From NCBI GenBank assembly GCA_003024985.2, contig PXIH01S0002051.1: DNA of 22,667 bases; one strand, 5' to 3'. The stretch is from Euperipatoides rowelli. Lineage: Eukaryota > Onychophora > Udeonychophora > Euonychophora > Peripatopsidae. Below the pieces are notes generated by a model. It searched no databases. It saw only the letters and a list, made by a program, of their open reading frames with translations, and had not been told where the DNA came from. The translations under genes were made by a program, and so were the position numbers. Shown here piece after piece: positions 1 to 22,667 of the stretch; the stretch's first letter is position 1; the number at the start of each line of letters is the position of its first letter.

Positions 1-240
1 TACGCATTCATAGATGCAAAGTATTTCGTTACTAGCGAATAAGCCCGTTAGACGGACATCAAACATTATTTTTTTGTTTAAGCCTTTTTTATCTAAGAGA
101 AAACATCATTTAAAGTTTCTAAAAATAGCTCCAGCGCCAATCTTTTAAGCCCGTTACACAGGCATCCAACTTTCTTTTTTTTTATTTCAGTGATCTAAGA
201 GAGAAAAAAGTTTGAAATAAGCCCGTTAGATGGCACTGCT
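1..240. repeat. Degenerate repeated unit (AAGCCCGTTA ... ATCTAAGAGA)
   Basis: AAGCCCGTTA occurs at 41-50, 147-156 and 219-228. The first two copies are each followed by a T-rich stretch and then ATCTAAGAGA (91-100 and 193-202). This defines two diverged units of about 72-106 bp and the start of a third, running off the left edge or ending at 228. It looks like old tandem or transposon-derived sequence; no coding potential was seen. Confidence 0.65.
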
Positions 241-1010: not shown

Positions 1011-1038
1011 CTAAAAAAAAAAATTTTTCTTTTTCAAG

Positions 1039-1082
1039 CTCGCAACCCCCATGGGGGTTATAACCGCCATTGGGATTGCGAG
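1039..1082. repeat. 44-nt near-perfect palindrome
   Basis: Two 22-nt arms, 1039-1060 and 1061-1082, are inverted copies with 19 of 22 positions paired, starting CTCGCAA and ending TTGCGAG with GGTTATAACC at the centre. It lies next to an A/T homopolymer (1012-1030). It could be a tiny foldback element or an RNA hairpin in the intron or 3' region of the gene. Confidence 0.8.
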
Positions 1083-1202: not shown

Positions 1203-1210
1203 ACTTACCC
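1203..1210 (-). other. 5' splice site (donor) of the giant exon
   Basis: The minus strand reads AATGG|GTAAGT, a perfect match to the metazoan donor consensus, with the exon ending at 1209. The TAA that closes the open frame (1207-1205) is the TAA inside GTAAGT, so translation of the spliced mRNA does not stop here. The codon is split after its second base (phase 2, GG|N = Gly whatever follows). Because the upstream intron is phase 1, the exon length (21,121 nt) is not a multiple of three, and skipping it would shift the frame. Confidence 0.85.
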
Positions 1211-4200
1211 ATTGGACTCTCGTGGTGAATGAATAACTGTCTTTTGCTGCAATTCTTCTTGAGCCAAAGCAATCTCGGTTCTAGATTGTTTTCGGGCTTG
1301 CTGATATTCATGTAATAATGAAGTCATTTCAGAAGATTCAGTGCTAGAATTAGAAATGGTTGAATAATTGTCCGTATTAAGACGTAATTTATTGTAGTGG
1401 TTCCTACTAGGTATGCTATTTTGGGTATCAGCTGATGAAATAATATCTGGTTGATAGTCATAATTGATTAGTCTTTCTGGATAATGTTTATAATTATTTA
1501 AAGTCTGAAGATCCACTTTTTTATTAGGACAAACATCTCTGAAAGTGTCTACTAGACTTCGCCGTAGTTCTACCAGACGTTGCCTATTTTGGCTAGGTGA
1601 AAAGGATGAATACAATTTACTAATAGGGCCAATTGAATTTGCAATGATCGGACGTGGTGTTATTGGAAACTTAGTAGATTCAAATGAATTTTTTAATTTT
1701 TGTGGACGCTCATTTGAAATAGTTAGAGGCTTTCGGTGTATTCTTTTCCTTTTTAATTTTTCCAATTTGAAAATACGATCTTGAATTTTTTCATATGATT
1801 TCTCTAATTGTGTCTGATATTTATGCAGATAATGCTGGGTAGTTTCACTTAAATGAGATAATGGATAAATGGGGTCATCTTTTTCCCATGGTAAATCAAA
1901 AGTACGCAATATGGAGTCGGTCATTCCCATTCCATATGTAAGCTTTGCTTCAGTAAGTTCGGTATGTTCTGTGAACGGAGGCGTATCCCTTCCAAGCAAA
2001 TGAAGAATTCTTTCCCGTTCACTGATTAAGGAGTTCAGTTCATCCTCTAATAACTTTTCAGTTTCCATTTCAACATATTCATCATGTAGACCATCGATAA
2101 CTTCCTTTTCATTGAAATTCTTTTTGAATAGTTGACGACGAGTTGGGAAATCATTCAAATGATCACTAGCAGTTTTATGCACATCATATTCGGATGATCT
2201 TGGTGCATACGCATTTGTGAATGAGCCAACTGGGGTTAAGGAGCCTAGAGAGTGATAATATTCTCTATTGTATCGATCAGAAGATACATCAGATAGAGAA
2301 TACCTATTAATATTTCCCCTTCCTGACAATTTATTATCCATTGATAAATCATATTGTTTTAAGTTCAACGGTCTGAACGTCCAACTTGTAATTCCAGAAC
2401 TTACTGTATCGGAATTTGCTTTCGTAAGTGAATTATATGCAACTGATTTATGTTCATAACTATACAAATTATCTTGGTAGTTTTTACAATGAAGATGCCC
2501 AGAGTCAGAAATGGTTTTCCTTTCTTTTTTCCACATATTTTTATCATTATTTTCCCTGTTTGAAAATCGAGATGTTGAATGTAAGGAAAAGTCCAAAGTA
2601 TGAGTTTGAGTAGAAGCATCCTTATGATGAATATTTCCCAAAGTTTGAGTGCCTACTGTCACTGAAGTTCTTACTTTAGGACTAATAACTCGATTGTCTA
2701 AAGTCTGCCTTCTGTTTAATAAACGTTTAGAATCAACACGCAAAGATGACTGCTGGAGCCAATGGGTAGCTGTCTGTGACAAAATTAAGTTGGAATTTTT
2801 GTCTTCGGGTTTTATATCGTGTGTAGTGCCGCTTTTCTTTATTGGTGTTACAAAAGCATCAGATTTTAGACTTAGACAAGATTCTGAAATGGATAATTCT
2901 GAAGCTTCCGAGTCGATTATTTTCTTAGACTGTAGAATGCCAGTTAGCTTCCTCTCCATCAAAAACCTCAATTTATCACGGGATGATAAAGTAGACGGAT
3001 CTTCTTTACTAAGTCTAATATTAGAACTTTGTGGTAATTCTGGTAAGGAATGAACTGATAAAGAAACATATTTATCCTGTGTTAATTGCTCAAAAGAATT
3101 TTCACTATATGCTGAATTGTTTTCAAAATTTATTTCAGACAGATTGCCCCAGGAGACAGTCTTTCGAGATTTTTGATAGGGTTCTTGATGTTTTGAGATT
3201 TTTTCAGTACTTTGTTCAGCACTGATTTTATCTTTTGAATCATTAGTATAGTGTCTATGCATTTCAAAGGGAGATATGGATATTTCTGATGGAATGCTGT
3301 TATGCCTGTGTTTGCAGTAACATACATTTTCCAGGGACACAGAGCGTTCAGGGAACATCGTATACTCCTCAGTATGTTCCTGTCGGAATTTTTGTGCACG
3401 GATGATTCTCAAATTATCATCTGAAGTGGTTCGACGAAGAATAGATCCTTTATTGGTAATATTATGATTAGAAGGGCCACCCATAAATACAAAAATAATA
3501 CTATCGGTGGATGTATTTCTAGCTGGAATGAAATCTGAGCTATACATATCCGGAGATATTGAATGAGGAACTTCAGAGTTGGCTTCACTTTCATCGTAAG
3601 ATGAAGATGAAGTTGTACGTCTTCGATAGCGGTATCGTTTTTCAAGAGGTTTAATATGTTGGTGTTTCTGAGGTAAGTCTTTAAATGTTGGGATGTAGTC
3701 ATTATTTAAATCATCATCACTACTAAACACATCAGAAACGTCTAAGTGTGAATCAGCAGCATCACTTACAAGATCTGAAAGGCTGGCGTTTGGAGAATCA
3801 GTTGATAAGTCTGAAAGATGGCTAAAATTTGAACTTTTCCTTCCTCTATGAAATTTCTTAACTGCATCAGGATCAATAGAGGTATCTTTGTCACCTTCTA
3901 GAGAGTCATCTTGGCCATTTAAGACCCAAGATTCAATTTGTTTCTTAGAAAGAAATTCTTGACTCTCATTTCTATCCGACCAAACTGGAGGAATGCTTTC
4001 CAGTTTACGATTTACAAATCTGACCGCAGTTACGATATCATTTACATTTTCTGGATCTTTCAACTCAGTTGCCAGATTGTTGGGATTTGAAACGCTTCTT
4101 GGAGAATTACTTTCTTCATAAACATTCTGATGAGCCCATGTATTCCAAGTACCATCATCCATCTGACACCAAGAATTCCAAATACCATTCTCAGATGATT

Positions 4201-7200
4201 TTGCTTTATGTTCTGAATTGGTGTAGTCTCGTTCTAGTGCACTTTCTGTTGTACTAAGAAGTTGAACTCCATCTAGATCATTTTCCTTTAGAATTTCGCC
4301 ATCATTTGGATATTTTTTGACAATTTCATAATGATCGGGGTGACTTAGAATATCATCTGGTATCATATCATTAGTTTCAGTTATGTCATCATGAATAGCT
4401 ATTGAATATATTATATCAGTATATTCATTTTTTTCTGAGGGTTGAATTAATGGCACCTTATCAGTTACAATATCTTGTAATTCATAACTAGTTTTCAGCC
4501 GATCTTCTAAAGATTGCAAAGAAGGTAACGGTTCAATATTTTTATTTTCAGACCTAATTTTCTGGTCTTGAATTTCTAAAGAAATATGATCTTTGACAAC
4601 CCTTTCTGGAGTATACACAACTATTTTGTTCTCTATACTGGTAGCAATTTTCCGAACATTTACATCAACCGGTTCATGATTCCAAGAGCTCCAATGTTCT
4701 CCAGAATATGCTTTCCAGGTATTCCAAATGACATCAGATGCAAATGGATTTACACGATCTATTTCTTCAATTAATTTAGTGTCCTTTCCAGCCTTTTCAG
4801 CAGTTGTTGATCCATTTGACATGTTCAATAATTCACTTTCAACAGACTCATCTGAAGAATAATCTAACATCTGCATTTCGATATTTACTCCTCGACTTAC
4901 TAATTGTTTAAGTAAAGATGTAATAATCTCAACATTAGTATTAGTGTCACTTTCATTACCTTCTTCCAGTAGTCTATTCACCTTATCAACTGTTGGATTA
5001 TTTCCATTAATTTTTTTCTTACTTTCATTTATTATTTCATTATTTTTATACATTCCTTCATGTTTATTTCTATTATAACTTTTTTCACTGGTGTTTTCTT
5101 CTTCACATTTTTTATCTGGATCAACTAGTTCTTTAGTTTTGGAAGATGTTTCTAGATTATAATTAATTGCCATATTAACAAGGTTTTTATCCAACTTTTC
5201 ATTTTCCTCAATTGCCTTTTTATTAGCTTCGTCACAATGATCTATAGGCAAGTTTTGTTCTCCAGTAATATCATTAATTTTATTTGCAATTGAGCATGAT
5301 ATGCCACAATTCTTTATCATTATTTCTAGATTAAATCCCTTATATTCATTCATCATGCTGGTCATCTCAACATGTGCAGTTTCGCCTTTTACAGCTTCCC
5401 CAATAACATCCTTCTGCCAATAATCCCAACTCTTCCAGATACCATCTTTATAAATATCCCACTGATTCCATGAGTATTTACCAAATTTGAATTCTTCATC
5501 TTTACCTTCTGATAGGGCATACATATCAAAGCCTATTTGAGGAGCAGCATTAGGAATGGGTATGTCTAAATTCAAAGATTCCATTTGAATTGTACCAATG
5601 AGTTTGGGTTTCACATTTTCTAAACAGCTAGCTTCAAAGTTATGTTCATTTTCAATTAACTCTTCAAATAGCCGTTCTGGTAAAGATGTCTCCAAAATGC
5701 CACTATTTTGTGAAATTTCAGGGTCAAATTGTTCTGATGTGATATGTATTTTGTCAAGTCTTAAATTACTTTCAAAGTCGTTATGACAATCATAATCGGA
5801 AGCTTCACCTGACTTAACGCAGTCAGAAACAGATGGCAAGCTTTGTTTCAAATTTAGACACTTTTCTACATTAATAATTTTCTCATCATAACTTTCATCT
5901 GTCCCAAGTTCGGAAATGCCTTCAAAATCAAAGTTTTTATCCATCATTTTTAATGTGTGATGATCACTTTGTAAAATATTGTCACTATTTTCAAATGTTA
6001 CAATAATTTTAATTTGAGAACTAACATTAGGGCCTTCAGAGTCTTCGTCTGTCCATGATGAAGCATTAACTATTGATCTTGAGCATGGTTCATCATAAGT
6101 ATCGGATATCTCAATATCAAAGTCTTTGTGTTCATTACTGTCATTCATGTTACTTTCAATATACAAATTTTTAGAATCTGTTGGCTTAATATCTAACATC
6201 ATCTCATTCAATTCAATTTCAACAACCGGCATATCTTCACATGAGCACATGCACTCCTCGCATGCACATTCTAAACATTCTTTGCCACTTGTTTCATCAA
6301 TAATACCTAGTTCTAACTCTTTAGCTCTCAATTCATAATAAAAATCTTTCACATCTTCATCAATTGTTTTATTATTCTCAATAATGTTATTTCCAAGTAT
6401 ATCCAAAGTCCTATCCTCTTGGTCATCAGTCATTTGTTTAATTATTTTAGATTCTTCAAATATTTCTTTGCTATTGTCATGGTATAATTCAACTGTTTGT
6501 GACGTTGATTCCTCCGAGGCTAGAATTTTAATTTCTTCAAAATTTTGAATCCCGTAATAATTTTCATTATATTCATCTTCTTCACTTTCCTCAACAAGTG
6601 TCTCCAATTCCTTTAGTTCAAACTCTTGTTCCTCCATCTCATAAATAGATTCATTTTCCTCTTCTTCACTCTCACTTTCCTCAGGAATGGTTTCCAGATC
6701 ACTTTCATCAGGAATGGCTTCTACGATTACTCCATCCTCGTTGGCCACAAGTACATACTTATCTTTTGACATAGCCTCAATTAAAACATATTCTTGCATT
6801 TCAGGAGTGAAACTACCATCCTTCACTAAGTAGTTAATGCTTTCTTTGGAGATCCTTCTCTGAGGATTGAACACTACATACTCTGACTGTGACAAATCTT
6901 CCTTAATTTTTTTATGATTCTTTTCATATTGTTTGTCTGTCTCAAAGATCATTTCATCTTCAAATAACATTTCTGGTTCTTCTTCATCAAATTCAAAATG
7001 TTCAATATTGCTTTCCATTAATTCCTGTTTCAAACTGCTTCCTGCTTCTTCCTCTGAAGTAATTACATCACTACTAAAATTGGAATCATTTATCTTTTCA
7101 CAATCCATTTTAGTTTCATCTTCCAAAGTGCATTCATTGAGAATAGTTTCCTTCAAACTGACATTAACTATTGTATCGTTAGAACTATTAAATATATCAT

Positions 7201-10200
7201 CATCTAAAGACTCTCCCGAACTTGGTGATAACAACTCCTGGTCAGGAGACCTCAATTTATCATCATCAAAAATTAATCTATCACAAGAATCATCTTCAAT
7301 AATTATTTTTGATTCTAGTAATGAATAATCTTCTGGTTCAGCATCAAAATCACTCAAATATTCATTAGAAGAGACACTGGATTTCGAATTTTCTACAAGT
7401 GATGACAATGATGATAAAGAAGTTGCTTGTTCAGCAGACTTCTCTTCATTTTTCTCTTTATAAACATAATCATTCTCATAAATGTTATTTTGTAATGGAT
7501 CTAGTTGTAAATTACTACCATGACTTGTTATTTCTTCATTGTCTTTAGGAAATATTCCATTTTGCCCAATGCAATAATTATGGATATATTCATTAGAAAT
7601 TTCAAGGTTATTATTAAATGCAAGGGTCTTAAATCCATCATTGTTATCAATTATATTTTTACATTGTTCATTTTCATTGCTCTCTGCAAACAATTGTGTT
7701 TTGTTTATCGGAATAGAAGCAATAACTAGACTATCGTTCACAAGGTCATTAGAAGGATGATGGTGGTAGTGGAATTTTAGACATTCTATTCCACTTGCAT
7801 TTTCAAAGTTTACAGAAGATGTTTGCATTTCAACAACTTTGGCTAGTCCTTCTACAGATGGATTATCATCAATACAAGAGTAACCGTTAGTTTTCTGAAT
7901 AAGTGTATCTTGTGTATGATAACATGGTATTGTTCCGATTTCTGGATATGACTTGGTACTATTTAAACCAAACATGTGTTGATTGTTATCAAGATATGTT
8001 TGATCGTTAAATATTTCTTCAGAAGTCTCAGTCTCTGACAGGTGATTTAATGAATTTTCTAAATCAACTTTGCTTGAAGAGGTTACTTGATGTGCATCAT
8101 CTTTAGTAATTAAATAAACATCCTCCAATCCTTCCTGTTTGTCTGACAATTGCTTTTCCATGAGCAATATCTCGCTTTCAGATAGGCACTTCTTGTAATT
8201 ATATTCTTCAATTTCTTCTCCTTCCAATTCTTCTGGGATTTCATCTTCATCAGATTCATCATTGACATCTTCAGGACATTTTTCGTTCATTGATTTTCCA
8301 TCTATCCATTCATCAACTTGGATTTTAATTGATGTTCCAATAATATCTAAATCAGGAGGCAATTTATCTCTTTGATTTATTGGAGTATTTACTGCAATGT
8401 CTTCTGAACCAAGCCCTAAAAAAGACGTTTTGCCAGTTGACATAACAGAAACTTTAGAACTTGTAATTATCTGAGAATCTATATCTGTCGTTGTGATTGG
8501 TTGGCTCTGATGCTCACAAAGATGTGGGCTTGTTATATTGGTTTTACTTTTGGGGGTGGTTTTTTTATTTTTTGGCATCTCTTCCGATTCTTCTTTAATC
8601 ATTTCCAAATTTATCTGAGAAGTACCAGGCATCGGGTCAACATCTTCATCAGAGTTATCAGTTGGTGGTTTTGAATTATAAAATGCTGCCACTAGTTTTC
8701 CTGGACTATTTTCACCTGGTTCGGTCATTTCAATGGTAATCTCAGAATCTGTAACATAAACAGCAATGTTTGTTTCTGATTTATGGCTCTCAATAAATAC
8801 ATCATCAATTTCACTTTCCTCTTCTAGATCCAGGGATATAGAATTACTATTCCCACTGCTTCTATTTGTACACAAATCTGAAAAATCAGATTGCTCTTCA
8901 ATACCTATTTCTGAGTGATAATCGCCAGTCTTCTCGTCAACATTGTCTTGGCTGACATGTTTTTTGTCAACAATATTATTGTCAATAACAGGGCTGGCAG
9001 CTTCATCTAGAAATTCCTTTTCAAATTTACTATCACAAGTCTGACCTATTTCTTTGATAGGGGTCTCTATAATTTTAGATGCATCTTTATTGAATTCTTT
9101 CTGTTCATTGTCATCAATACAATTTTCATTGCTAGAATTTGACAAGGTATCTCCTACAGCAAAACCAATTTCTTCCCTTTGTTTTGATATTTTTTTAAAA
9201 GTTTCAAGGATAAACATTTTTACAATAGAATTCTCCCTAAGTTTCTCTAATGCCTTTATGTCAGAATCGGCTGGAAAATCTTTATTATAGCTTTCATTAG
9301 TTTTTACAAGACTTTTATCAACAAAAACTTGATTCTTGTCAATATTGTTGTGATTTGCCAAGTCATCTGTTTTTTCTACAGATATAACCTGAAAAGAGTT
9401 GGGTTTCTGATTCAAAAATCTCTTAAAACATTTAAGGACGTACTTTTTTACCATTGGATTATTGGAAAGTTGCTGCATGGCCTCTTCATCTGGTTCAATG
9501 CTAGTGCATAATACATTTTCATTCACCTCTTTGTGGATCTTCTTTTCTGCATTTCCATGAAGAAAACCGTCACCATCTACCGTTTTCTTCACATTACCTT
9601 GTTTCTCTTTTGCCGTACTTTTAAAAGCTTCAAGGATATACATTTTTACAATAGAATTGTCATCCATTTCCAAGAACTCATCGTCAACAGTTAATGTTGA
9701 CAGTTTCTCTTCAGCTGAAGCATCTAAAACTTCTGCCGCCAATAATCTTATTTCAGCTTCGGCTTCTAACTTCTCAGCAGCTTGTAGTGTCTCTTCAGCG
9801 GCAGTTTCAAGTAGGATGGATTCTTCCAAATCTTCGCTTGCATGTCGTCCAAGAATTTCGGCCTTTTTAAATTCCATACGAGCATCATTTTGCATTTTGG
9901 CTGCCATTTGAAATATTGCATCGCCACTACATTCTAGTTCTTTGGCCTTTTCTAGTTTCTCTTTTGCACTTGCATCCAAAGCATCAGCCTCTTTAAGTCT
10001 TCCAAGAGCATCTTTTTCAACTTCATCAGCATTTGTAAGTGTTCCTTTAATAATACTTTCTAATTCTTGTCTTGCAATACCTTGTAAAGTTTCAGCTTTA
10101 TCAAATTCAGCAGTTGCCTGGGCTTTGAAATCTGTTGCTTCATCAAATTTCCCTTGCGCTTGTGATTCGAGTTTCTCTGCAAGTTTTAGTTTTCCATGAG

Positions 10201-13200
10201 CAATTTTTTCCAATTGCTCAACTTCTTCAAACTTCTGTTTGGCATTCCTTTCGAAATCTTGTGCAGCTTTCAATTTTTCATTAGCCTTCCCCTGAAGCTG
10301 AACTGCAATTTTAATTTCATTTTTAGCATCATCTTCAAGCTGGTCTGCAGCATTAGCTTCTTCTTTAGCCGAAGATTTTACCTTCCCTGCTTCAAAAGGC
10401 AATTTATCTGCAAGACGTGCCTTGACAGTCACAGGTAACTTTTCAACCAGTTTGATCTTTGTTTCAAGTTCTTTATCATCTACCAAGTCCTCATCTGTAC
10501 TCAAGTCTTCAGAGCCTCGTTTACATGTGAAATAGATTGGATCTCCTTGAAATTCCTCTTCAAATTCCATTTCCATTTGATCTCCAAGATCCAATTCAGC
10601 CATCATTTTCAACTTTAGAACTTCAGCCTTTTCTTTCTCCTTGAGTTCCTTAGCTGACAGAAAAGCTTCAATAACATTTATCGCTTTTAAACAAGTTTCT
10701 GGATTATCAAACTCATTAATACTACTACCGTCTTCATTTTGGTCTACTAAATCAGATTTAGTTTCTGATAAATCTTCATCTAGATTTACTTCATCACTTT
10801 TCTGTTTAGCTAATTTGTTATTACTTGTATCTAGTTCAACAACTTTATTTTCATATAATATATCTTCAATAGGATCAATTTCATAACTTTTAGCTCCGTT
10901 GGAATCTTTTTCATTACTTTCATTTTCATTTCTATCTTCGTTTGAAACTTTTTCATTACTTTCATTTTCATTTTCATTTTTATCTTTATTTGGATTTATT
11001 TCATCAATGTTATTTAGATCTGATATATCCTGTCCAATACAACTTATCACATTAACTTTATCTTCATTTAATATAAACTCAATTGGATCTGCTATTTCAT
11101 CAGCATTATCCTCATCTGATGTATCATATGGTGATTTTATATTTAATCTTATTCTAAATTTAGAGGAACAAAATTCATCAGTTATGTCATTTCTTTCCAC
11201 AACATCTATTGTTTTGTCTATATTTTGATTATCTCCGAGAATTCCATCCCTAAAACACAAACTGTTTTCTACATTAGCTGTTACCAAATTATTATTGTCA
11301 AATATTTTTGTTATTCTCATTTCATCATTAATTTCTTCATCTAATACACTATGTGATTCTTCAAATAACTGTTTACTATTGTCTTCCTCATAACTTTTAG
11401 ATTCTTCCATTTTATCAGATCCATTAGCCATTGTGTTAAATGTATCATGCTCATTTATTATTTCGTGAACAGGACTAATATCAACAGAATGTGGTACATC
11501 TTCCTCTTGATTGACTTCCGATGAACATACTTTAACAGTGTCATCGTGAGATAAAGATACCATTTCATAATCATGGCTATCAAAACCTTGTTCTTTCCTA
11601 AGGTTTTCACTTTCTGCTTCATGAATGAAATTGTCTGCCATTTCAATAACTTCCTTTTCTGGTGTATCAATGGCTTCTGGTGAGTGAATGACAATCTTTG
11701 GAACTTCCATATCAAAGGAATTATATTCTCTAGATAGATGTCCCATGTTCTCTTTTGTACTTACTTCAGATAAGGTTCCAGTTTGATTTCTTTTTTCAAT
11801 TTTGATTGTTAAGCAACCCGTTTCATCATCCTCAATAACTTTATATGTCCTATGCACCTTTTTTCTTTTTGCAATACTTCCTTCATTCATCAGTTTAGCA
11901 ATCCCAAAGTCTACTTCATTTGATACATCATCAAACATGCTACTATCATCACTGTCATAGTTCACAGAGTTTTGGTTGTATTGTTCATGATATGATTCAT
12001 TGTTAAAACCGAGCACAGCATTTGTTCCAGTATACAGATGCTCATTCAATCCTCCTTCTATTTCATAAAAATCTTTTTCATGACTTGAGAAACTTGCTAA
12101 AGACTCAATATTTTCTGTAATATTTGAGTCAAAAAATAATGAACAACCCTTATCTCTGGCAATTTCTTCAAGTTTTGAAACTTCAGCCATTTCAGATGAT
12201 GTTTCCATTGTTAACCAATTTCTTTCTTTTTCTGTCGCTACTACTTCTCTTATATCTTTAGAACTTTCAGAAATGTTCTGTTCATTTTGTAATACTTCCA
12301 TTTTATCATCTCTCATTGTTATTGGTTGATTATTTCCAACAGTTATGTTTGGAGTCTCGTCCGTTAATATTATTTCATTTTCCACATGATTTTCCATATG
12401 GTCTTCAAGCTCCTTTATAATTACTGTACTCTTCTTTGTTTCTTCATTTGTTTGTTTGTAATTAAAATGGTTCTTTACTATAAACTGTAATAATTCATCT
12501 ATAACAGATTCTGAATCAACTTCATATTCACAACTATTGGGGTCAAGAGTAATATGCATATTATCAATAATATTATGATCTATAATGAAGTCATTGGGAA
12601 CCATTTGTTGAAAATCACTTGATTCAGTTGGACATTCATGGTCTTTTATTTCTTGGAGAACAAAATTTTGAGCAGGGGCTTTATCATATACTGTTACAAA
12701 ATGTTCAGGTTCAACATCCAATTTGCTGTCGCCACTTCTAGTAATTATTTCACTGTATATCTCTGTAGTTGAATTTTTTACTATATCAGATTGCATGTCT
12801 ATAGTTCCAAGTAAGCCATTTTGCTCTAGATTTATTTCAGGCATTATTTTGTTGTACCCTATTAAATCATGATGAAATGGCCTAGTTGTCTCCGACATGT
12901 CAACAATTATGAAGGTATCTCCAACTAAGGAGGCTTCCAATGGTGATTGTCCAGGAATTGCTTGAACAATTTCAGATACAATAGATGAAAGTATATCACT
13001 TTCAACTTCTTCTAAGACGTCTTGATGACTTGCTATGCATTCTTTATTATGTGTCATAGCTTCATTAAAGCATATTTCCTTAAATTGGTTTTGATTTAGT
13101 ATTTTTGGTGACATCACTGGAATCTCAGTATTATCCAATTTGCTTGGTGTTTTATTGATGTCATACTCTACTTCAGACTGTTCATTATCAATTGATGTGG

Positions 13201-16200
13201 AACTTGTAATAAATGATCTATCACTGCTGCCATCATCTACTATTCCTGTCATATGATATTCTGATTCCAAATGACTTGTCTTTATTTCATTTGATGATGA
13301 TTCAACAGTAAGATTTTTAGCTATGTTTAATTCACTTTCATCATTTTCATGGCTTTTCATGATTTCTGAATTTTCATCATTAGGTTGGTCAATTTCTCTA
13401 ATGCTAATAGTCTTAGAATCTGTGTCTATCTGTTCGTCATCTTCTTGTACTTCTCCGCAGGTTTGCAAATCATTATCAGCAAATTCATTTTTATTTCCTG
13501 TGAAAACCAAGATACTTAATGTTACCGTTTCATCTTGAATTTGTGTGGAACCAAAAGTATTAGCTTCATTCTGTTTTATTTCAAGTGGATCCACATCATT
13601 TTGAAGATCATTCAATGTAAATACAGTTTTTTCAGCTATTGCAGGGTCACTATTGTTAGAAATTATTTGTCTTTTATCAATAATCTCATGAGTTTTTGTT
13701 GGCTCATCAATTTCAAATCGTTCAGAGCCTTGGATAACTTTTTTATGGGATGTCTCTTCATTGATATCCCCTTCAACTCTTGCAATGTTCATTATGTAAG
13801 CTGAAAAAACAGAATCAAGTCCATTTTTTTCTTCAGATTTTACAGAAATGGTTTCATTATGTTCAAATTCAGAAGATTTATCAATTTTCTCAAGATTGCT
13901 CTTTAAAGGTCCAGTTTCATGAGTTATTAATGAGTTTCTAGTGGTAAGAGATTCAATTTGGGATGTGTCAATAGTTTCATAGCCTGCATATGGCTTGTTA
14001 TCCATATTGGCTGATTTATTAGACGATGCATTAATGTCTCTAGTAAATTCTTTAATAAAGGATTCAAACACTGAGCACAAGCCATCTTCTTTGTCTTGAG
14101 ACTGGTTGGATTCAACTGAAATTTCTGAATGCATTGTACCCTCACAATTATGTTGTGGTTCTACCTTCTCATATTGTCTATTATCATTTTCATTGTCAAC
14201 AATTATTTCTATGTGCTCTTTTATTTCAAGTTCTTCTTCTACCTTCTCATATTGTCTATTATCATTTCCATTGTCGTGAATAATTTCTATGTGTTCTTTT
14301 GTTTCAAGTTCTTCATCAGTTTGAGTAATTTCTAGTTTTGAGTAATTTCTAGTTAGAATACTGCTAACTTCTTTAACTGAATTCAAAATATATGAATCAA
14401 ATACCGAATTTAATTCACCCATGCTACGATTATCTTCAACTTTAATTTCTAATTGCCTATCAAATTCTTGATTCGACCTGCCCTCATCTACCATTTGCTT
14501 CAGATGCTTATTATTAACTATATCTTTTCTTTTTATAGCATCTAATGAGCTAATTTCAAAGGATTCACTTTCAATTATTTGCTCATCATTATCATTTTCA
14601 CTTCCCATTGCTGATCTAATGCTTCGATGGGTCATAGAAGAGTATTTGTTCTGCTTAACCTCCATATAGTCATGTTCAGAGTCGTTATCTTGAATTCCAA
14701 AAGTGATTTCTTCCTGAGATTTATCTACATGGCTTCTATCTGTTTCAATAACAGAATTCCTCTGAAAGTTTTCACTTTTAACATCCTCTACAATATAATG
14801 TTCAATAATTTTATCTTCATTATCCAATTGAACACTACCTACATCAACTTCATGAGTGTGCTGTTCAGGCAGCCTATCTTCACTTGAATGATCAGCTACT
14901 TTCATTTTAGAATCCATCGTGGACTTATCATATAAATATTGCAATGCTTCAACATCCTGACTTATATATTCAGATTTAATACTTTGACATTTTGGGGCAA
15001 CTACATGTATTGTTTCTGAAGACACATATGGTCCTTCAAGATCTATTTCCAAATCCACTGCTTGCTGGTTATTGTCCTTTATTAAATTATCTCTCCTATA
15101 ATCTAATTGGGATTGTATATTACTTATACATTCTCTTTCATCTTCAATTTTTATGGATTCCTTTACACCTGATATTTCACCTTCTTCTGTATTCATAATC
15201 CCATAATTGTTTAAGTTATCTTCATTTTCTGCATATCTAATTTGTGATTGCTTGTTGCCATCATTATTCTTTATAATTATATTTCCTTCTAATGGTTTTC
15301 TAATATCATTAGAATTCGTTGTGTGTTTTGCAATTCCAAACAATAATTGCTCACCACTTATTTCTGATATTGTTGCATTCTCTAATTTACTATCGTGTTT
15401 TACTTCAGCCACTAAACTATTTTCATATATGTTTCCTTCAGCATCATCTGATTTATTCAGGTATCTAGGCTTGTGTAGTTGATTATCAATTTCAGACTCT
15501 ACTTCAATGTTGTTGAAACTATTAATTTTTGTTCTAGAATCTGTTGTCAGACCTTTGGTGTTGTCTTCTGAGATGTCGGTATCTGTTTCAATATCATGAG
15601 GTTTTAATTCACCAGAAAGGTTAACATTATTAACCATTGTTTGTAACTTCTCAATTTTAATAGCATCTACTACCGCTTCCACAAGCTTTGTGGCAATATT
15701 ATCAACTACTACTTCATCATCAACTGTTACTTTTCTAAGACCCAAAACAGTTTCAAAATCTACTGATTCACTATCAGCCATAGCATCTACATTATCTTCT
15801 GTTTCAACATCCACTGTTGATTCTACATTGAGAATTCCATTTTTGATATCAGTTGTTTCAATGTTATACACTTTTGTACCACTATCATCAATAACATCAA
15901 CTGTATCAATTCCTGTTTCACACTTAGTTAATGTATCATCATTATCAATTTCAACAGTATCATTTCTTTCATTATCAAATGTGTCAAGGTAATACATTTT
16001 TCTATTCACATGGTCTAAATTTTTAATATCAGTTTCAATGTTTTGAACATCAATTATTTCTACATTATTAAGTTCAAAAGATTCTTCAGCTTCTCTGTCA
16101 CCCATAACTGTTGTTTTTACAAAATGAACTTCAAATGTATCCTCCCTTTCATCGTTCATGGTTGTTTCAACATTAACAATGTCAAGAATATCAACTTCTA

Positions 16201-19200
16201 TTTTACCATCAGCCATTGTTGTTTCATTACCCATTTTACAGGACTTTTCTTTTTCACCATCAACTGTATAATGAACTACAAAAGAATCTGTTTCATCAAC
16301 TGTATCTCCTATATTGAAAGCTTGAAAAGAATCATCACTTATTTTACCATCAACTGCTGTTGCATTCCTAACATTGTTAATTTGGATTTCTGTTTTAGCA
16401 GCATCAAGTTTTACATAATCTTCTTTTTCCCCATCAACTGAGTTATTCACATAGTCATCTTTAGTTATTCTTTTCTCTTTCACATTACTACTTAATTTTG
16501 TCTCATGACTACCGATTTTTGTTTCAGTACTATTTCTCACTTCAACTTCTGTATCAATTATATTAATTTTTGTTTCATCCATCTTTTTTACTTTTCTGGT
16601 AGTATTCATTTCAAGCATAACTACAGTTTCATTATCACTGGAATAAGTATACGTAACATCTTCATCAATCATATTTGCTTCAGGAAAAGCCTTGTCTTCA
16701 GGAGTTTCATGTTTTAGATCAATATTAACTTTGTCTTTAGATATTTTAATTTCTGAGTTAGCAGTTATAATTTCCTGCTCACAGTGATCATCAGCTAAAA
16801 CAACATTTGATCTTACAATAGCAATGTCCTCACAGGTCTCAGCATCTGCTTCAACTTCTTTAATTTTTACATCATTATCAACTACATAAGTATCAATTTC
16901 CATACTATTGCCTTTATTGGCACCTACAATGGTTTCAGTACTTCCAAGATACATACCATATTCCACTGCCTTCAATACCCTATGACCAAATGTTTCATCA
17001 AAGCTATTACCATCTGCAGGAGAATCTGATTTATCATTACTATAATTTTCACCTTCTACTTCAATTATATCAATAGGTTCAGTTAGATTATTATCTTTAT
17101 CATGAATTTCTGGCTCAGAACAATCAGAATTTGATTTAGACCCATCTAAATCTAAATGCCTAATCTCGTCTGCCATCATTGCGGATTCTAAATCAGGTCT
17201 ATTGTTATTTTCTTCAATCCTTATATTAACCAAATTTGTTTCATCATCATTAATAAGATTTCTTTGTTTTTCAGTACTGTTATGTATGAAATCAAACGTT
17301 AAGTTAGAAGTATCAGTGCATTTGATATTTGTCAATTTATCAGGATGTTCCACTTCTTGATTTATTGCCACACTTTCTTCAATGATTTCATTTCCCGTTG
17401 TGTCTCCCACAATATCTTCTTGTTTTTCATTGAAATAGAATTCTTTCTCCATTTTTGCATCACTTGTTAGAGCAACTGCTTCAGCAAAATGTTGCCCTCT
17501 ATCATCCACCTCAATGGTACCTTCTTTGTCCCCCAAAATTGGTTTATCTGGATAAAAAACAGACTGAACTTCAATATTCTGAATTTCTGGTAGTTCATCT
17601 ACAGATGTCTTTTCTAGTCCAATAGTATCAGAACAAAGCAATGATCTACATTCTGAAATCTTGATTGATGGCCATTTTTCAGAAACATGATTATTAATGC
17701 AAACGATACCTTCTTGGTATTCATCTTCTTTATTTTGCTCATTGGAAAAGTCATTATGTATTGAAGATGAGTTTTCATATTTTGATAACCCCATTCCATT
17801 TACAGATTTTCTTAGTTCCTCTTCCTCAGCAGTGGTATTCATATTTTGTAATTCTTCAAAAGTTTCATTACATTGTTCCAATTTTATATGTTCTTTAATT
17901 TTTGGAATGAACTTTTCTTTATGAAATTCATTCTCACCATCAAATAATGGTGTTTCTGAATGATCTCCATTTTTATTTTCTGAAGAAACTAATGATCTAC
18001 AATTGGAGATTTTAATAGATGGCAAAAATTCTTGAAACAGACCTGTCTGGTTAGAGATGTCTGTTTGATTATTATATTCATCGTTCATGCTTCTTTCACT
18101 GAAATGGTCATTATTTATTGCATGTTCCTGATCATTTTGTGACAATCCATCCTGTTTAGTAGGCTGTCTGAATACATCTTCAATTTCAAAATTTATGTCC
18201 ATTAACATATTTCCTCCTCTTTTATTCAAATGAATTCCATTAACAGAAGTGGATAACTGAACAGCCTCATCAAAGTTATTCTCAACTCTAGAAATATCAG
18301 AGTCTGCATCTAAGTTTGTTATTTCTAATTCTTCATTATCAACTGTTTGTTGAAGTATGTTAGAACTGGAAGAAACCAATGACATACAATTAGAAATTTT
18401 AAAAGGTGGCCATTGTTCATAACTGATGTCATTATTGTCAGAACGTTCCATTTCTTTATTGGATCTATCTTCTATGTTTATATCAAAAGTGACATTGCTG
18501 AAGATGGATTCCTGTTCGTTTTCTAATGATCTATTATCCTTTGTGCTTAAGTTACATGGATCTATATTGTTTAAGAATGTTTTGGTCTCTTTCATGACAG
18601 TTTTCATGGGACTAATTTCATAAACGTTTTCTAATATCTGTGTATTTACTTGCTCTTCATTATCAGAATCCTGACTACTATTTACCAACATTTGGTTTAA
18701 CTTAAGTGTTGGAGTTCCAGATGATAAACGACGAAGACAGGGATGAGTTGGAGCTAAGAAGTGTTCATATAAGGCATCATACTCACTTATTTGACCCGTA
18801 TTGTGTTGATCAAGCAATTTGGTAGCTTCATCATCGCTTCCTGAATCACTTTCAACTTGAGTGTTGGCAATATAGTAACTCATAGATACTCTTTTGAATG
18901 GACAGGAATACTTAATTTCTTCATCCTGTTCATTTTGAAACTTTTCTTCTACAATATTTGTTAAATACCAATTCTGATTTCTAGATTCAACATCTATTTG
19001 GCATTCATTCTTTTGTATAGCAGTGTCTATAAATTCTACTTCTGGAGTTCCATTTGTCAAATTTGCCAAGGCAGCCTTTATTGCCGTTTGGACCATAGAA
19101 CTTGATATAAAATCTTCTTCATTGGCAATAGTAACGTTTGAAGACTCTAGAATTGTTACATCAAGTTCATCTTTATATTCCTTCATTGGGCTATTTGCAG

Positions 19201-22200
19201 TGCCATGTGAAATAATATAACTTGTACTACTTTTATTGCACTCCTCGGCAGAAAAATTCTCTTTAGTACCAAATGACTTATCTTCATGAATATCTGATTT
19301 TTGCTTTATTTTCTCATTAATAAAATTGTCAACATTATTATAAGCTTTTTCTAAAACATTTTTGACTAATTTCTTGATACTATTATCCTGCACTAATAAA
19401 TCAATACTTTCTTTTGTTTCTCGCCTTGAATAACTGAAATGTTCTCGTTCAGATGACACAATTTCTGATTCAGCTTCATACATATCACATACTTCATCCA
19501 AATCATGAGTTTTAGGTGTAGATTCTATTGTTCCTACTTCATTTAATTTATATTCTGTTTGACTTTCAATTTCATCTTGAATGTTTCCTAATTTGATGCG
19601 AGCAGGAATCACTTCATCATGTTTTATTTCATCGTCATTCAAACTAATAACTTCCATGGAGTTTAAGTGTTCTGACTTTATTGTAGAATCTCTGTCAAGT
19701 ATTGCCTGTTCACATTTATAAGTTTCTCCATTTAGGTTTTCATCATAATCTTTTGAATCTGAAATGTCCATTTTTGGAGACAAATTTTCAAAGGTATGAC
19801 TATTATCCTTTAAGTGTAAAGATGAAAGATCATCAATTTCTAGAGAATTACTTGATTTATTAATATCAACTTGATCAGCCATTTTTTGGTTCTGATGAAG
19901 ATAGTTTCCATTGCTGCTATCAGTATCATCTTGATCTGATGTAAAAACATGTTGATTCATGACATCGTATTTATGGTGTGCTTCAAATGAGCGTTCCAAA
20001 ATAATGTTCCTACTATTTGAAGATGACTTATCAACATTATAATTTGAAATGCTTTGTGTTGGACTAAGCTCAGAAGGATAAATATGTGGTAACTGAAGTT
20101 CTTTTAAAGAATCATCAGAATAAACACTATCATTATCAGACATAGCGTAAGCATCAGAACTACTTTGTTTTCTCTCAGAAACTGATAACGGCTTGCGACG
20201 TTTTCTGGATGTGGATCCCAATCTGGGACTTAGTCTTGAGAAGTTGCCAGAAACAAGAGAATCTTCTGAACAACCACTATTTGCATCAGATTCTACATCA
20301 TGATTTATTTCTTTATGTTGTTCAGTTCGTTTTCGTAGTAATTTCTTTGACAATTTACTACGAAGTAATAGTTCAGGAGATTTAGAGGGCAATAAATTTG
20401 GTATATTGGAGCTCTTTATACTGTAGTCTTCAAAATTCTTCAGTGGAACGCTATCCTCTTCACTTCCTTGGCTGTGGTATGTTTTAGGAATATCTTCATT
20501 AAGGGAATCCTCCGAGCAAACATGCTCAATCGATTTGGTATGAAGCTTATTTTCTAATGAATCATTGGACTGTAAACTATCATCGGAATACTCTTCCATA
20601 GAATCTCCACAAGTTTCATCCATTTTAGATTTTTCATTCATTAAATCTGAAACTTGTGTGAAGTTCTTTGCACTAGTTTCAGATGTCATNGACTGTTGAT
20701 TGTTTGTTTGTTTAGAAGATGCTATTATATTTTTTTGCTCCGATGTATTACCCGGTATATACCTATGATTACCAACATAGATATCTATTTTAGGTTCTTG
20801 ATCTGGAGATATTGCTGTTTGACAATCAGAAGTAATATTTTCCGATGATGATGCTGGTAAGGATACACGCCGAGATTTCACAAGCTTATTTTTCACAATA
20901 TTGTCTTTTAATGTGTGCGATTTCATGACTTCTTGATGTTCTGTAGTGTTAATTTCTGATTTTGTTGTGAATCTACAATTTGATTCCAGTTTTTCATTCA
21001 TGATCTGAGTTTTTGTTGACCTATTCATCTTCATTGTTTCAGTGGAATCCTTGTCAATGTTAGCAATATTAATTCTTTTTGTCCGAACTTCGGATTCTGG
21101 AATGAAAACCCATTCCATTTCACTGTTAAAACTTTTGATATTTTCCTTTATTTCTGATGATGTCATCATGTTCTGTAAGAAGTGAGCATGTTCCACTCCT
21201 GATGAATCTTCTAAATCAGGGTCTAGGTAATTCATAAAGAGTTGCTGATGTCTGGCAATATCAAATTGACTTTTTTCATAACTTTCACTGCTATTTCTGT
21301 GGATTGTCTGCTGTGGTTCCGAAATAAAATTTTGAACATTTTCATCATTTTTTTCGACAGAAGAAGAGCTCCAAGATGTTGTCTCGGTTAAAAATTCTTT
21401 ACTTTCCTTGTCAAAATGAATTTTAGAAGGTAAAAAATTTCCAAAGTGTTTGCTTTTACTATCAGTTGAATCGTTAGAATCTTTATCTGACCGGTGAGTA
21501 AAATGAAAGTTCAGTTTCTTTGGTAAAAAATCTGGTTTTAGTTCTTTGATAAAACTAGTTTTTTGAGAATCTTGTGTGGAAAACATATTATAATTTTGTA
21601 CAAAAGTCTTAGAAATAGTTGAGTAATTATTATGTAGTGTTTCTGGTTTGGAGAATTTGCTATTTGACTCTCTCTGCCTACAAGATTCCTCATTTAAACA
21701 CCTTTTAAATCTATTAGGGCAAAAGCTGTCCGGGATTCCTGGAGATGAGGTCGATGGTATTTTAAAAATACCATTAGTGTCTTTAATATCATCATCATCG
21801 TCATCATCATCATCCTCTGATAACAATTTCTGATTAATATTTTCTTCACTACAAGACTCACCAATCGGACTAATACGATCGATTCCTCGTAAATATTTTT
21901 CTATAATCTGTTCTTGATTTTCGATTGAGGCTAAATGTTCACTTTGCACAGCAATGTGACGAAGATTTGACACACCTTCATGGTGATAATCATCTTCTAA
22001 CCGTTGAATTCTTCTTTCCTGAGCTGCAATAAGTTCTTGGTTAATTAAAATACTTTGTTGGTAAGTCCTCATTTCATGTCTAAAGGAACCGTCATCAAAC
22101 TGACAATTGCTATCTTCTAGTCTGTGTTTATTTTTCCCGTTTTCACGGTCAAATTCCTCCATTTTATATTCTGTGTGAATATGAAAATCTCCAGTTGTGG

Positions 22201-22329
22201 GATTCACTTTGTCAGTTTGCACTTGTGAATCTTCAGTAGTGGATCTTTGGTAGTCTGTTTGAATGGCAAATTCTTTGGTGGATTTATCCGACAACTTTTC
22301 ACATGATTGACCTTCAACAATTCGCAGCC
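1209..22329 (-). CDS. Giant internal exon of an unidentified very large acidic scaffold-like protein (partial CDS)
   Basis: This single open frame encodes 7,039 complete codons between a consensus acceptor (AG at 22331-22330) and a consensus donor (GTAAGT, 1208-1203). It begins with the last two bases of a split Gly codon (phase 1) and ends with the first two bases of another (phase 2). The protein is rich in Asp, Glu, Asn and Ser, shows no signal peptide or membrane segment, and is probably mostly disordered. In order it has: an N-terminal coiled coil, a poly-Asp run, several families of short repeated motifs, a 14-residue helical repeat (residues 3995-4222, counting from 22351), a Cys cluster near 5359-5371, three Trp motifs (5628-6072), and a basic, coiled-coil C-terminal part. 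I do not recognise the family; a cytoskeletal or membrane-cortex scaffold is only a guess. One ambiguous base (N at 20690, residue 554) does not break the frame. Neither start codon nor stop codon lies in this exon. Confidence 0.93.
1700..2160 (-). other. C-terminal structured-looking segment with two coiled-coil stretches
   Basis: Residues about 6730-6880 are less acidic, with regular helix-forming stretches (TEKLLEDELNSLISERERI and YQTQLEKSYEKIQDRIFKL) on either side of a Pro/Gly/Thr-containing section (RDTPPFTEHTEL, LTYGMGMTD, LPWEKDDPIYPL). A strongly basic tail, KLKRKRIHRK, follows. The complexity and mixed composition suggest this is the part most likely to be conserved and to reveal the family by homology search. 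I did not recognise it. Confidence 0.5.
2603..2650 (-). other. Paired TQT motifs (candidate dynein light chain LC8 sites)
   Basis: Two TQT triplets, in VGTQT (2642-2650) and ASTQT (2603-2611), lie 13 residues apart at about residues 6568 and 6581. LC8 (DYNLL) partners often carry several TQT motifs spaced this way in disordered regions. Related ITQTD (about 14325), AIQTD (about 22255-22267) and QVQTD (about 22211-22225) occur elsewhere in the protein. Confidence 0.45.
3149..3163 (-). other. RVxF-like PP1 docking motif (KTVSW)
   Basis: Residues 6397-6401 read KTVSW, preceded by Arg and followed by Gly-Asn. This fits the general [RK]-x-[VI]-x-[FW] pattern by which regulatory subunits bind protein phosphatase 1. 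It lies in a basic, Ser-rich region with many RRxS/RRxT-type sites (for example RRRTTSSS near 3610-3635). Such motifs are short and occur by chance, so function is inferred only. Confidence 0.4.
4136..5470 (-). repeat. Three WNxWx7Wx[ST]W tryptophan motifs
   Basis: Copies at 5426-5470 (WNQWDIYKDGIWKSW, residues 5628-5642), 4682-4726 (WNTWKAYSGEHWSSW, 5876-5890) and 4136-4180 (WNSWCQMDDGTWNTW, 6058-6072) keep four Trp at identical spacing (1, 4, 12, 15), Asn at 2, a Gly at 9 or 10 and Ser/Thr at 14. With one adjacent extra Trp they account for about 13 of roughly 30 Trp in the whole protein. They are separated by 248 and 182 residues of acidic sequence. I know no named domain with this pattern; it could be a small beta-hairpin or Trp-zipper-like binding module. 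Confidence 0.85.
6239..6277 (-). other. Six-cysteine cluster (C-x2-C-x-C-x2-C-x-C-x-C)
   Basis: Six Cys residues lie within 13 positions (5359, 5362, 5364, 5367, 5369, 5371; CLECACEECMCSC) in a protein that otherwise has few Cys. Metal binding or palmitoylation is possible. The spacing does not match a zinc-finger class I know. The flanks are acidic and neutral, with no obvious second half of a zinc site. Confidence 0.7.
9194..9658 (-). repeat. Triplicated N-[SP]-[IM]-V-K-x-[YF]-[IV]-L-x-x-F-K motif
   Basis: Three 13-residue copies at 9620-9658 (NSIVKMYILEAFK, residue 4232), 9422-9460 (NPMVKKYVLKCFK, residue 4298) and 9194-9232 (NSIVKMFILETFK, residue 4374) directly follow the 14-residue helical repeat. 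Each is preceded by an acidic/Leu-rich lead-in and followed by basic residues. Unit spacing is 66 and 76 residues. A looser relative (NSIKKLVKNVLEKAYN) lies far upstream near 19330-19385. The pattern predicts a short amphipathic helix, plausibly a partner-binding site. Confidence 0.8.
9686..10369 (-). repeat. 14-residue amphipathic helical repeat, about 16 units
   Basis: Residues 3995-4222 fall into tandem 14-residue units with Ala at position 1, Leu/Phe at 5, Ala at 8 and Leu at 11, and charged residues elsewhere; examples are AKEKLEKAKELECS and AEETLQAAEKLEAE. Seven units run without a gap, an eighth carries 8 extra residues (NADEVEKD), seven more follow, then a partial unit ends in LSTLTV. 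Position 1 is Ala in all units but one (Gly). Hydrophobic spacing is 4-3-3-4, which predicts one very long helix, either a coiled coil or a surface-lying amphipathic helix. It differs in period from the 11-residue repeats of perilipins and synucleins. The segment is the only clearly Ala-rich, regular part of the protein. Confidence 0.88.
10889..10972 (-). repeat. 42-bp tandem duplication (14-residue Asn/Glu-rich unit)
   Basis: Two adjacent units, 10931-10972 (NENESNEKVSNEDR) and 10889-10930 (NENESNEKDSNGAK), form a low-complexity Asn/Glu stretch at about residues 3794-3821. The DNA is a simple ATT/TTC-type repeat and looks like slippage-prone sequence. Confidence 0.85.
14161..14316 (-). repeat. 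78-bp tandem duplication encoding two 26-residue units
   Basis: Two adjacent copies, 14161-14238 and 14239-14316, match at about 70 of 78 positions by eye. They encode near-identical 26-residue units containing KEHIEII and NDNRQYEKVE. The in-frame length and high identity mark a recent duplication compared with the other, much more diverged repeats of the protein. Confidence 0.92.
14321..14354 (-). repeat. Exact 17-bp tandem duplication read in two frames
   Basis: The 17-base unit TTGAGTAATTTCTAGTT (plus strand) occurs twice back to back at 14321-14337 and 14338-14354 with no mismatch. Since 17 is not a multiple of three, the two copies are translated in different frames, giving TRNYSK from one and LEITQT from the other. 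The surrounding frame stays open, so a compensating change must have occurred or the duplication arose with another indel. Confidence 0.9.
16028..16444 (-). repeat. Degenerate DGEKE/DGK repeat block
   Basis: Six imperfect units share a core such as VDGEKED, AVDGKISDD, TVDGEKE, MADGKIEVD, MNDERED and VMGDREAEE, each followed by alternating hydrophobic residues (FEVHFV, FELNNV). VDGEKE starts at residues 1972 and 2030, and MNDERE at 2065. The alternating pattern would suit short beta strands separated by acidic turns. The block continues more weakly to about 15600 as Thr/Val/Asp-rich sequence. Confidence 0.55.
17630..18409 (-). repeat. Triplicated P-x-[IF]-K-I-S-[NE]-C-[RM]-S-L motif
   Basis: Three copies of a 14-residue motif occur at 18368-18409 (PPFKISNCMSLVSS), 17981-18022 (PSIKISNCRSLVSS) and 17630-17671 (PSIKISECRSLLCS), that is residues 1315, 1444 and 1561. 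They sit in an acidic, variable background with about 129 and 117 residues between starts. Related flanking text (VNGIHLNK, VNGMGLSK) suggests each motif is the conserved core of a longer degenerate unit of about 120 residues. I know no named domain with this pattern; a short linear binding motif is the likeliest reading. Confidence 0.75.
20098..20610 (-). repeat. Cluster of [YC]S[DE]DSL motifs with basic nuclear-signal-like stretch
   Basis: The six-residue pattern [YC]S[DE]DSL occurs four times in about 170 residues (YSDDSL, CSEDSL, CSEDSL, YSDDSL), with a further NDSL between them. The acidic Ser context fits casein kinase 2-type phosphorylation sites, which is inference. A basic stretch SRKRRKPLS (around 20189-20206, residue about 716) and KKLLRKR (about 20325-20350) lie within the same segment and resemble nuclear localisation or lipid-binding basic patches. 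Confidence 0.6.
21788..21814 (-). repeat. Poly-Asp codon run ((GAT)n microsatellite)
   Basis: Nine consecutive Asp codons (eight GAT and one GAC, seen as ATC/GTC on the plus strand) encode residues 180-188. The run is a trinucleotide microsatellite and could vary in length between individuals without changing the frame. Confidence 0.9.
21975..22090 (-). other. N-terminal coiled-coil segment of the giant protein
   Basis: About 35 residues near positions 88-125 have charged/hydrophobic spacing typical of a helix or short coiled coil (for example NQELIAAQERRIQRLEDD). Upstream (residues 29-47) are two xQTD motifs (AIQTD and QVQTD). This is a structural prediction by eye; no family is implied. 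Confidence 0.5.
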
Positions 22330-22350: not shown

Positions 22351-22560
22351 AACTATTAAACTATTACTTTTTAAATAAATTTATTCATTATACATTACAT
22401 GATAACAACATTATGATATAACAATTTCTTGATTATACATACAATTGAGTATAAAATTATATATCATACATAGTATATAGTCATCACAGAAAATAATTTC
22501 AGATAAAGCAGGCTAATTCCTAAAAAAAAAACATAATTTGACATGAAAATCCGGCCAAAA
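22351..22560. other. AT-rich intron sequence
   Basis: This is the 3' part of the intron before the giant exon. It is strongly AT-rich with small AT palindromes and no open frame or repeat I can support. Confidence 0.6.
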
Positions 22561-22567
22561 AAAATTT

Positions 22568-22649
22568 TGTCCATTGTCGGATTCGAACCAGCGACAAAGC
22601 GGGCCACCAAAATACCGAGCGGTCGACTTTACCACTCGATTAGGCCCAC
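22568..22649 (-). mobile_element. Degenerate tRNA-like element (tRNA pseudogene or SINE head)
   Basis: On the minus strand an A-box-like stretch (TAATCGAGTGGT) is followed by a perfect B box (GGTTCGAATCC) and, just beyond, a run of eight T (22565 to about 22556) that could stop Pol III. Total span is about 82 nt, as in Ser/Leu-type tRNAs. A functional tRNA is unlikely: the acceptor arms pair at only a few positions, the T stem has a mismatch, and no clean 5-bp anticodon stem forms. It lies in the intron upstream of the giant exon, on the same strand. A tRNA-derived SINE is the favoured reading. Confidence 0.6.
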
Positions 22650-22667
22650 AGACCTACTATTAAATTA

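What the first reader, a model, noticed from the sequence alone, without database searches (positions are those of the whole stretch)
1209..22329. A single internal coding exon of about 21.1 kb
The frame is open for 7,039 codons between a good acceptor and a perfect donor. That places it among the largest coding exons known in animals. The phases differ (1 upstream, 2 downstream), so the exon cannot be skipped without a frameshift. The protein family is not recognisable by eye, so this may be an undescribed giant protein.
Basis: partly seen in the sequence, partly recalled or inferred. Interest (0 to 1): 0.8.

Follow-up and report, generated by a model that had tools for sequence, protein, structure and literature searches.

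The report
Giant 21-kb exon, probably STARD9-like kinesin
An unidentified animal-type genome carries one uninterrupted 21,121-base protein-coding exon that encodes a mostly disordered 7,039-residue section of a giant protein, probably a very long relative of the kinesin STARD9, though its motor and lipid-binding ends could not be seen here.

Summary
On the minus strand, 22329..1209 is a 21,121-bp stretch with 7,039 whole codons and no stop, flanked by a good acceptor and a GTAAGT donor; phases are 1 and 2 as stated. The coding score is positive in 47 of 47 windows. Its first 2,400 and last 500 residues are single copy in the held genome, and only about 1.6% lies in tandem arrays, unlike mucin exons of similar size. 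Corrections: the donor is 'perfect' only on its intronic side, a terminal-exon reading stays open, and arthropod origin is doubtful.

The protein is acidic and mostly predicted disordered, with a confidently modelled helical hairpin (aa 3987-4210) and three degenerate motif families. No sequence relative was found, but I did not establish that these collections hold such animal proteins. Best reading: the tail of a STARD9/KIF16A-like kinesin. Three of four pieces of a recalled, unverified human STARD9 segment find their best place in the last 250 residues, in order. Motor and START ends lie off the contig or in N, so membership is untested. A probable new, extreme variant of a known kind.

The parts
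1209..22329 (-). single giant coding exon, 21,121 bp, 7,039 whole codons
22330..22352 (-). acceptor: pyrimidine tract and CAG; intron phase 1
   Evidence: sequence
1203..1208 (-). donor GTAAGT, intron phase 2; contains in-frame TAA at 1207-1205
1238..1333 (-). aa 6999-7030, helix matching the recalled STARD9 pre-START block
   Evidence: (recalled query; score 77, shuffle maximum 47), helix in the low-confidence model
1538..1597 (-). aa 6911-6930, second STARD9-like block (helix)
   Evidence: (recalled query; score 47, shuffle maximum 48, so not above chance alone)
1904..1957 (-). aa 6791-6808, third STARD9-like block (EAKL..G.G..D..L)
   Evidence: recalled query; score 47, shuffle maximum 40
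9698..10369 (-). aa 3987-4210, about 15 degenerate 14-residue repeats; two helices of 107 and 111 residues joined by a short turn (helical hairpin)
   Evidence: (mostly pLDDT above 90)
9176..9655 (-). three copies of a motif with V-K-x-[YF]-[IV]-L-x-x-F-K (aa 4225-4384)
   Evidence: pair scores 62, 44, 41
4127..5470 (-). three copies of W-x-x-W...W-x-x-W (aa 5620-6067)
   Evidence: pair scores 53, 53, 52
17624..18415 (-). three copies of K-I-S-x-C-x-S-L (aa 1305-1568)
   Evidence: pair scores 56, 56, 53
14159..14314 (-). one 78-bp tandem duplication, 2 copies, 91% matches

Best explanation
The window holds one internal exon that encodes the central tail of a giant cytoskeletal motor protein, most likely an invertebrate relative of STARD9/KIF16A (kinesin motor and FHA domain at the N terminus, START lipid-binding domain at the C terminus). 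By inference, upstream exons supply the motor, this exon supplies a 7,039-residue flexible acidic spacer carrying short repeated motifs and a helical hairpin, and downstream exons supply the START domain, so that the chain would link microtubule movement to a membrane or lipid cargo over a very long reach. Shown: the open coding frame, its splice-like borders, its predicted disorder and its motifs. Inferred: family, motor, START domain and function.
For: Open frame and coding continuity. Mostly disordered by charge-hydropathy, 66 of 70 windows, net charge -705, like the STARD9 middle, which is described as holding many disordered regions (passages of PMC12692329). A recalled human STARD9 segment aligns to the C-terminal part with score 92 against a maximum of 70 in 300 shuffles, and three of its four pieces find their best place in the whole 7,039 aa at 6791, 6911 and 6999, in the recalled order; the last two coincide with helices of a low-confidence model. 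Human STARD9 is 4,700 aa with 36 exons (passages of PMC10203878) and has kinesin, FHA and START domains (passages of PMC9252791). Long internal exons tend to encode disorder and to lie between folded domains (passages of PMC9825244).
Against: One block (6911) does not beat its own shuffles (47 against a maximum of 48 in 200), the fourth piece does not match in place, and the best overall local alignment (score 92, aa 6900-7030) leaves out the 6791 block and does not pair the 6911 block as the block-by-block match does. No START of STARD9 type and no FHA were found in the held genome; these searches have little power exon by exon. Kinesin-3-like motor exons on contig C8 look like KIF16B (label recalled) and are not linked to this gene. 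No relative in any collection searched.
Confidence: 0.6

Rival explanations
1. A giant disordered scaffold unrelated to STARD9 (a lineage-specific or undescribed family), using its triple motifs and helical hairpin to dock several partners.
For: No sequence relative found in the collections searched; the W..W, KIS.C.SL and V-K-x-[YF] triplets match no family that I know (recall); motor and START not seen.
Against: I did not establish that the collections hold animal proteins of this kind, so absence says little; three ordered C-terminal blocks resemble recalled STARD9.
Confidence: 0.27
2. It is the terminal coding exon: translation ends at the TAA that overlaps the GTAAGT, with a short 3' UTR, and nothing is encoded downstream.
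For: In-frame TAA at 1207-1205; AATAAA 89 and ATTAAA 61 nt after the exon end; moderate donor score 4.7.
Against: Any phase-2 GTAAG donor creates this TAA, so the stop adds nothing; AATAAA/ATTAAA is common here (6 sites in 1,208 bp); a full GTAAGT at the exact end of the frame is unlikely by chance.
Confidence: 0.1
3. Not a working single exon: assembly artefact, pseudogene or several genes.
For: One N in the exon; no transcript evidence available.
Against: 0 stops in 7,039 codons and positive coding score in 47 of 47 windows; no second copy of its first 2,400 or last 500 residues; no second ORF of 150 aa or more.
Confidence: 0.03

Closest known systems
STARD9 / KIF16A (kinesin with FHA and START domains)
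   Same: giant, largely disordered middle; C-terminal blocks resembling the recalled pre-START region; giant central coding exon in vertebrates (recalled, no call)
   Different: human protein is 4,700 aa in total (PMC10203878 passages) while this exon alone gives 7,039 aa; motor, FHA and START not seen here
Giant cassette exons of ANK2/ANK3, MAP2, NIN (SAFB-regulated)
   Same: very long A-rich coding exon (39.7% A in sense) of a probably cytoskeletal protein (PMC10901741 passages)
   Different: phases 1/2 mean that skipping shifts the frame, so it cannot be a simple cassette; 2.7 times the 7.8-kb ANK3 exon
Mucin VNTR exons (MUC4, MUC12, MUC16)
   Same: single coding exons of this size or larger (PMC13345508 passages)
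   Different: those are tandem-repeat arrays; here about 336 of 21,121 bp are in tandem arrays
Titin's largest exon (about 17 kb, length recalled; named exon 327 in a passage of PMC12672817)
   Same: very long coding exon that is not a VNTR
   Different: encodes folded Ig/FnIII domains (recalled); here mostly predicted disordered and no Pfam domain above cut-off

Membership tests
STARD9/KIF16A | N-terminal kinesin motor domain | not testable with these tools
   contig C628 ends 338 bp upstream of the exon; kinesin exons elsewhere are unlinked
STARD9/KIF16A | FHA domain after the motor | not testable with these tools
   would lie upstream, off the contig; genome scan for FHA empty, low power per exon
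STARD9/KIF16A | C-terminal START domain | not testable with these tools
   C628:1-10681 reads N; the one START exon found (C3696) looks like the STARD10/PCTP type (label recalled); a recalled STARD9 START query found nothing (no positive control)
STARD9/KIF16A | conserved pre-START blocks | tested here: inconclusive
   three of four pieces match in order, two of them above their shuffles, but the reference letters were recalled, not fetched
STARD9/KIF16A | giant disordered central region | tested here: met
   66 of 70 windows disordered by charge-hydropathy; not specific to the family
giant internal coding exon | one open frame between acceptor and donor, coding throughout | tested here: met
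giant internal coding exon | spliced as one exon in mRNA | not testable with these tools
   no RNA data held
mucin VNTR exon | length made up of tandem repeats | tested here: not met
   about 336 of 21,121 bp (1.6%) in tandem arrays

The most novel reading that the evidence does not exclude
This is the longest non-repetitive internal coding exon known in any animal, and it belongs to the longest kinesin known, roughly 8,000 residues, in which one exon has grown into an unbroken disordered tether one and a half times the length of the whole human protein.
Probability: 0.33. Interest if true: 0.65.

Novelty: new variant of a known kind. Interest (0 to 1): 0.48.

Why it matters
A 21-kb internal exon that must be recognised whole strains exon-definition models: how the splicing machinery passes over internal sites for 21 kb is a direct question for RBMX/SAFB-type repressors described in mammals (passages of PMC11446547 and PMC10901741). 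If the protein is STARD9-like, it shows that the middle of this motor is a length-tolerant tether that can reach 7,000 residues, which bears on how a motor and a lipid-binding domain at opposite ends of one chain cooperate.

Tried and rejected
Protein relatives: three searches of the large protein collection (1,940, 2,949 and 47 candidates, none at E <= 10), IMG/VR, PDB sequences and Pfam gave nothing credible (best PDB E 0.18; Pfam DUF3290 E 0.19, below its cut-off). Foldseek hits of the helical hairpin are generic coiled coils (chemoreceptors, SMC arms; one match at E <= 0.001, 16% identity) and were not taken as homology.

Selection against internal splice sites: tested and not found. Donor-like sites do not differ from 500 synonymous shuffles (GTAAGT 4 against 3.6; GTRAG 17 against 19.8; sites scoring 6 or more 0 against 1.4), and AATAAA is in excess (47 against 34.4), not avoided.

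CpG depletion (0.40) as a sign of gene-body methylation of this gene: not accepted, because eight unlinked genome pieces show the same (0.28-0.48). The two short introns in the window are higher (0.83 over 1,208 bp; 1.37 over 335 bp with 9 CpGs), which I leave unexplained.

Linking the C8 kinesin-3 motor exons to this gene: no support. Two motif families seen by pattern only (SVF.SYI, SDDSL) were not among the 40 top pairs listed by the scored self-comparison, so I do not count them. A self-BLAST printed nothing and was replaced. A search for STARD9 peptide words in the literature found no paper. A Kif16-like gene is mentioned in a passage on Nematostella (PMC4300403), without saying whether it is of the STARD9 kind.

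Full report
Observation. On the minus strand of the window a frame is open from 22360 to 1205, 7,051 residues, the only ORF of at least 150 aa listed in six frames. Between an acceptor (TTTGTACCTATTTTTATTTTCAG|GG, exon starting at 22329) and a donor (AATGG|GTAAGTCT, exon ending at 1209) lie 21,121 bases: two bases, 7,039 whole codons without a stop, and two bases. The other two sense frames hold 475 and 1,251 stops. With base composition alone the chance of such a frame is about 10^-269. A codon score trained on the rest of the exon is positive in 47 of 47 windows of 150 codons.

Corrections. The donor is consensus on the intronic side (GTAAGT) but weak on the exonic side; with a weight matrix of recalled textbook frequencies it scores 4.7, and three internal GTs score 5.4, 4.9 and 4.7. 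It overlaps an in-frame TAA, as any phase-2 GTAAG donor does, and AATAAA lies 89 nt further on, so a terminal-exon reading is possible; I hold it at about 0.1. One base in the exon is N (window 20690).

Genome. The window is C628:10682-33348 of a 100.9-Mb, 4,324-contig assembly and reaches the contig end. C628:1-10681 reads N; I do not know whether this is a gap or withheld, and it is where downstream exons would lie. Searches with the first 2,400 and the last 500 residues found the exon itself plus one match at E 2.5; the middle was not searched. Exact (TTAGGG)4 gave 12 overlapping matches on 3 contigs and none for the reversed control, (TTAGG)5 gave none, and the cuticle-protein family PF00379 gave none (nothing rang in its control genomes either, so this is weak). 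The species was not identified: the 18S search did not complete, COX1 was not found, and a channel family tried (PF02932) gave nothing.

The protein. It is rich in E, S, D and N, net charge -705, and 66 of 70 windows of 100 residues fall on the disordered side of the charge-hydropathy line. Residues 3987-4210 consist of about 15 degenerate 14-residue repeats; a single-sequence AlphaFold2 run models them, mostly at pLDDT above 90, as two helices of 107 and 111 residues with a short turn, while 239 of the 471 residues of that piece are under 50. Foldseek matches are generic coiled coils. Three motif families occur three times each: K-I-S-x-C-x-S-L (aa 1305-1568), a motif with V-K-x-[YF]-[IV]-L (aa 4225-4384) and paired W-x-x-W (aa 5620-6067). 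Their best pair scores (56, 62 and 53) exceed the best pairs of four block-shuffled proteins (45-47); two pairs within the V-K-x-[YF] family score 44 and 41, within the shuffled range. Tandem arrays make up about 336 of the 21,121 bp.

Identity. Pfam, PDB sequences, IMG/VR and three searches of the large protein collection gave no credible relative. I did not establish that these collections hold animal proteins of this size, so the absence says little. The lead is a recollection: the last 250 residues resemble the region before the START domain of vertebrate STARD9. The overall best local alignment covers 6900-7030 only and pairs its first half differently. A model of this part is low-confidence (mean pLDDT 49) but puts helices at 6911-6932 and 6999-7030. 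Because the letters are unverified and were typed after I had read the window, I treat this as inconclusive for membership and as moderate support for the reading. A recalled STARD9 START query found nothing in the held genome; the only START exon found (C3696) looks like the STARD10/PCTP type by my recollection, and no FHA exon was found. Kinesin-3-like motor exons on C8 resemble KIF16B by recollection and are not linked.

Known background. Human STARD9 has 4,700 aa and 36 exons, and a lysosomal role is reported (abstract and passages of PMC10203878). Its middle is described as holding many disordered regions (passages of PMC12692329). The counterparts compared in fly and worm share the kinesin domain but differ in their C-terminal domains (passages of PMC9252791). 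Coding exons longer than this one exist in human mucins (MUC4 alleles to 27,843 bp; MUC12 proteins of up to 23,080 aa; [quoted passage not shown] Long internal exons tend to encode disorder (passages of PMC9825244). RBMX represses cryptic splice sites in ultra-long exons and SAFB represses giant cassette exons within long A-rich targets (passages of PMC11446547 and PMC10901741); this exon is A-rich (39.7%) but shows no depletion of donor-like sites against synonymous shuffles and an excess of AATAAA. My literature searches for STARD9 in arthropods or insects listed no such report, and those for giant exons listed none that I recognised as a non-repetitive coding exon of this size; of those lists I saw titles and starts of abstracts, and of the papers named above the outline or passages only.

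Verdict. A real and extreme coding exon (about 0.95 that it is one coding unit; about 0.85 that it is internal), most likely the central tail of a STARD9-like kinesin (about 0.6). It is a new, outsized variant of a known kind.

Noticed in passing
window 22560-22655 (-): tRNA-like relic (box B GGTTCGAATCC) in the upstream intron; ARAGORN calls no tRNA and a genome search found only this copy, though common words are skipped.
   Followed up: partly
window 1038-1082: imperfect palindrome (CTCGCAACCCCC...TTGGGATTGCGAG) in the downstream intron, possibly a small transposon relic.
   Followed up: no
window 40-60, 145-160, 220-235: short phrase AAGCCCGTTA seen three times in the downstream intron.
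   Followed up: no
L023 (C8:100001-109187), 103385-105268 (-): Exons of a kinesin-3 motor that look KIF16B-like by recollection.
   Followed up: partly
L018, L020, L021, L023-L027 and window exon: CpG is depleted in eight unlinked genome pieces (observed/expected 0.28-0.48) and in the exon (0.40), but not in the two short introns of the window.
   Followed up: partly
L030-L037 (C110, C2280, C4007): TTAGGG arrays rather than the TTAGG typical of arthropods.
   Followed up: partly
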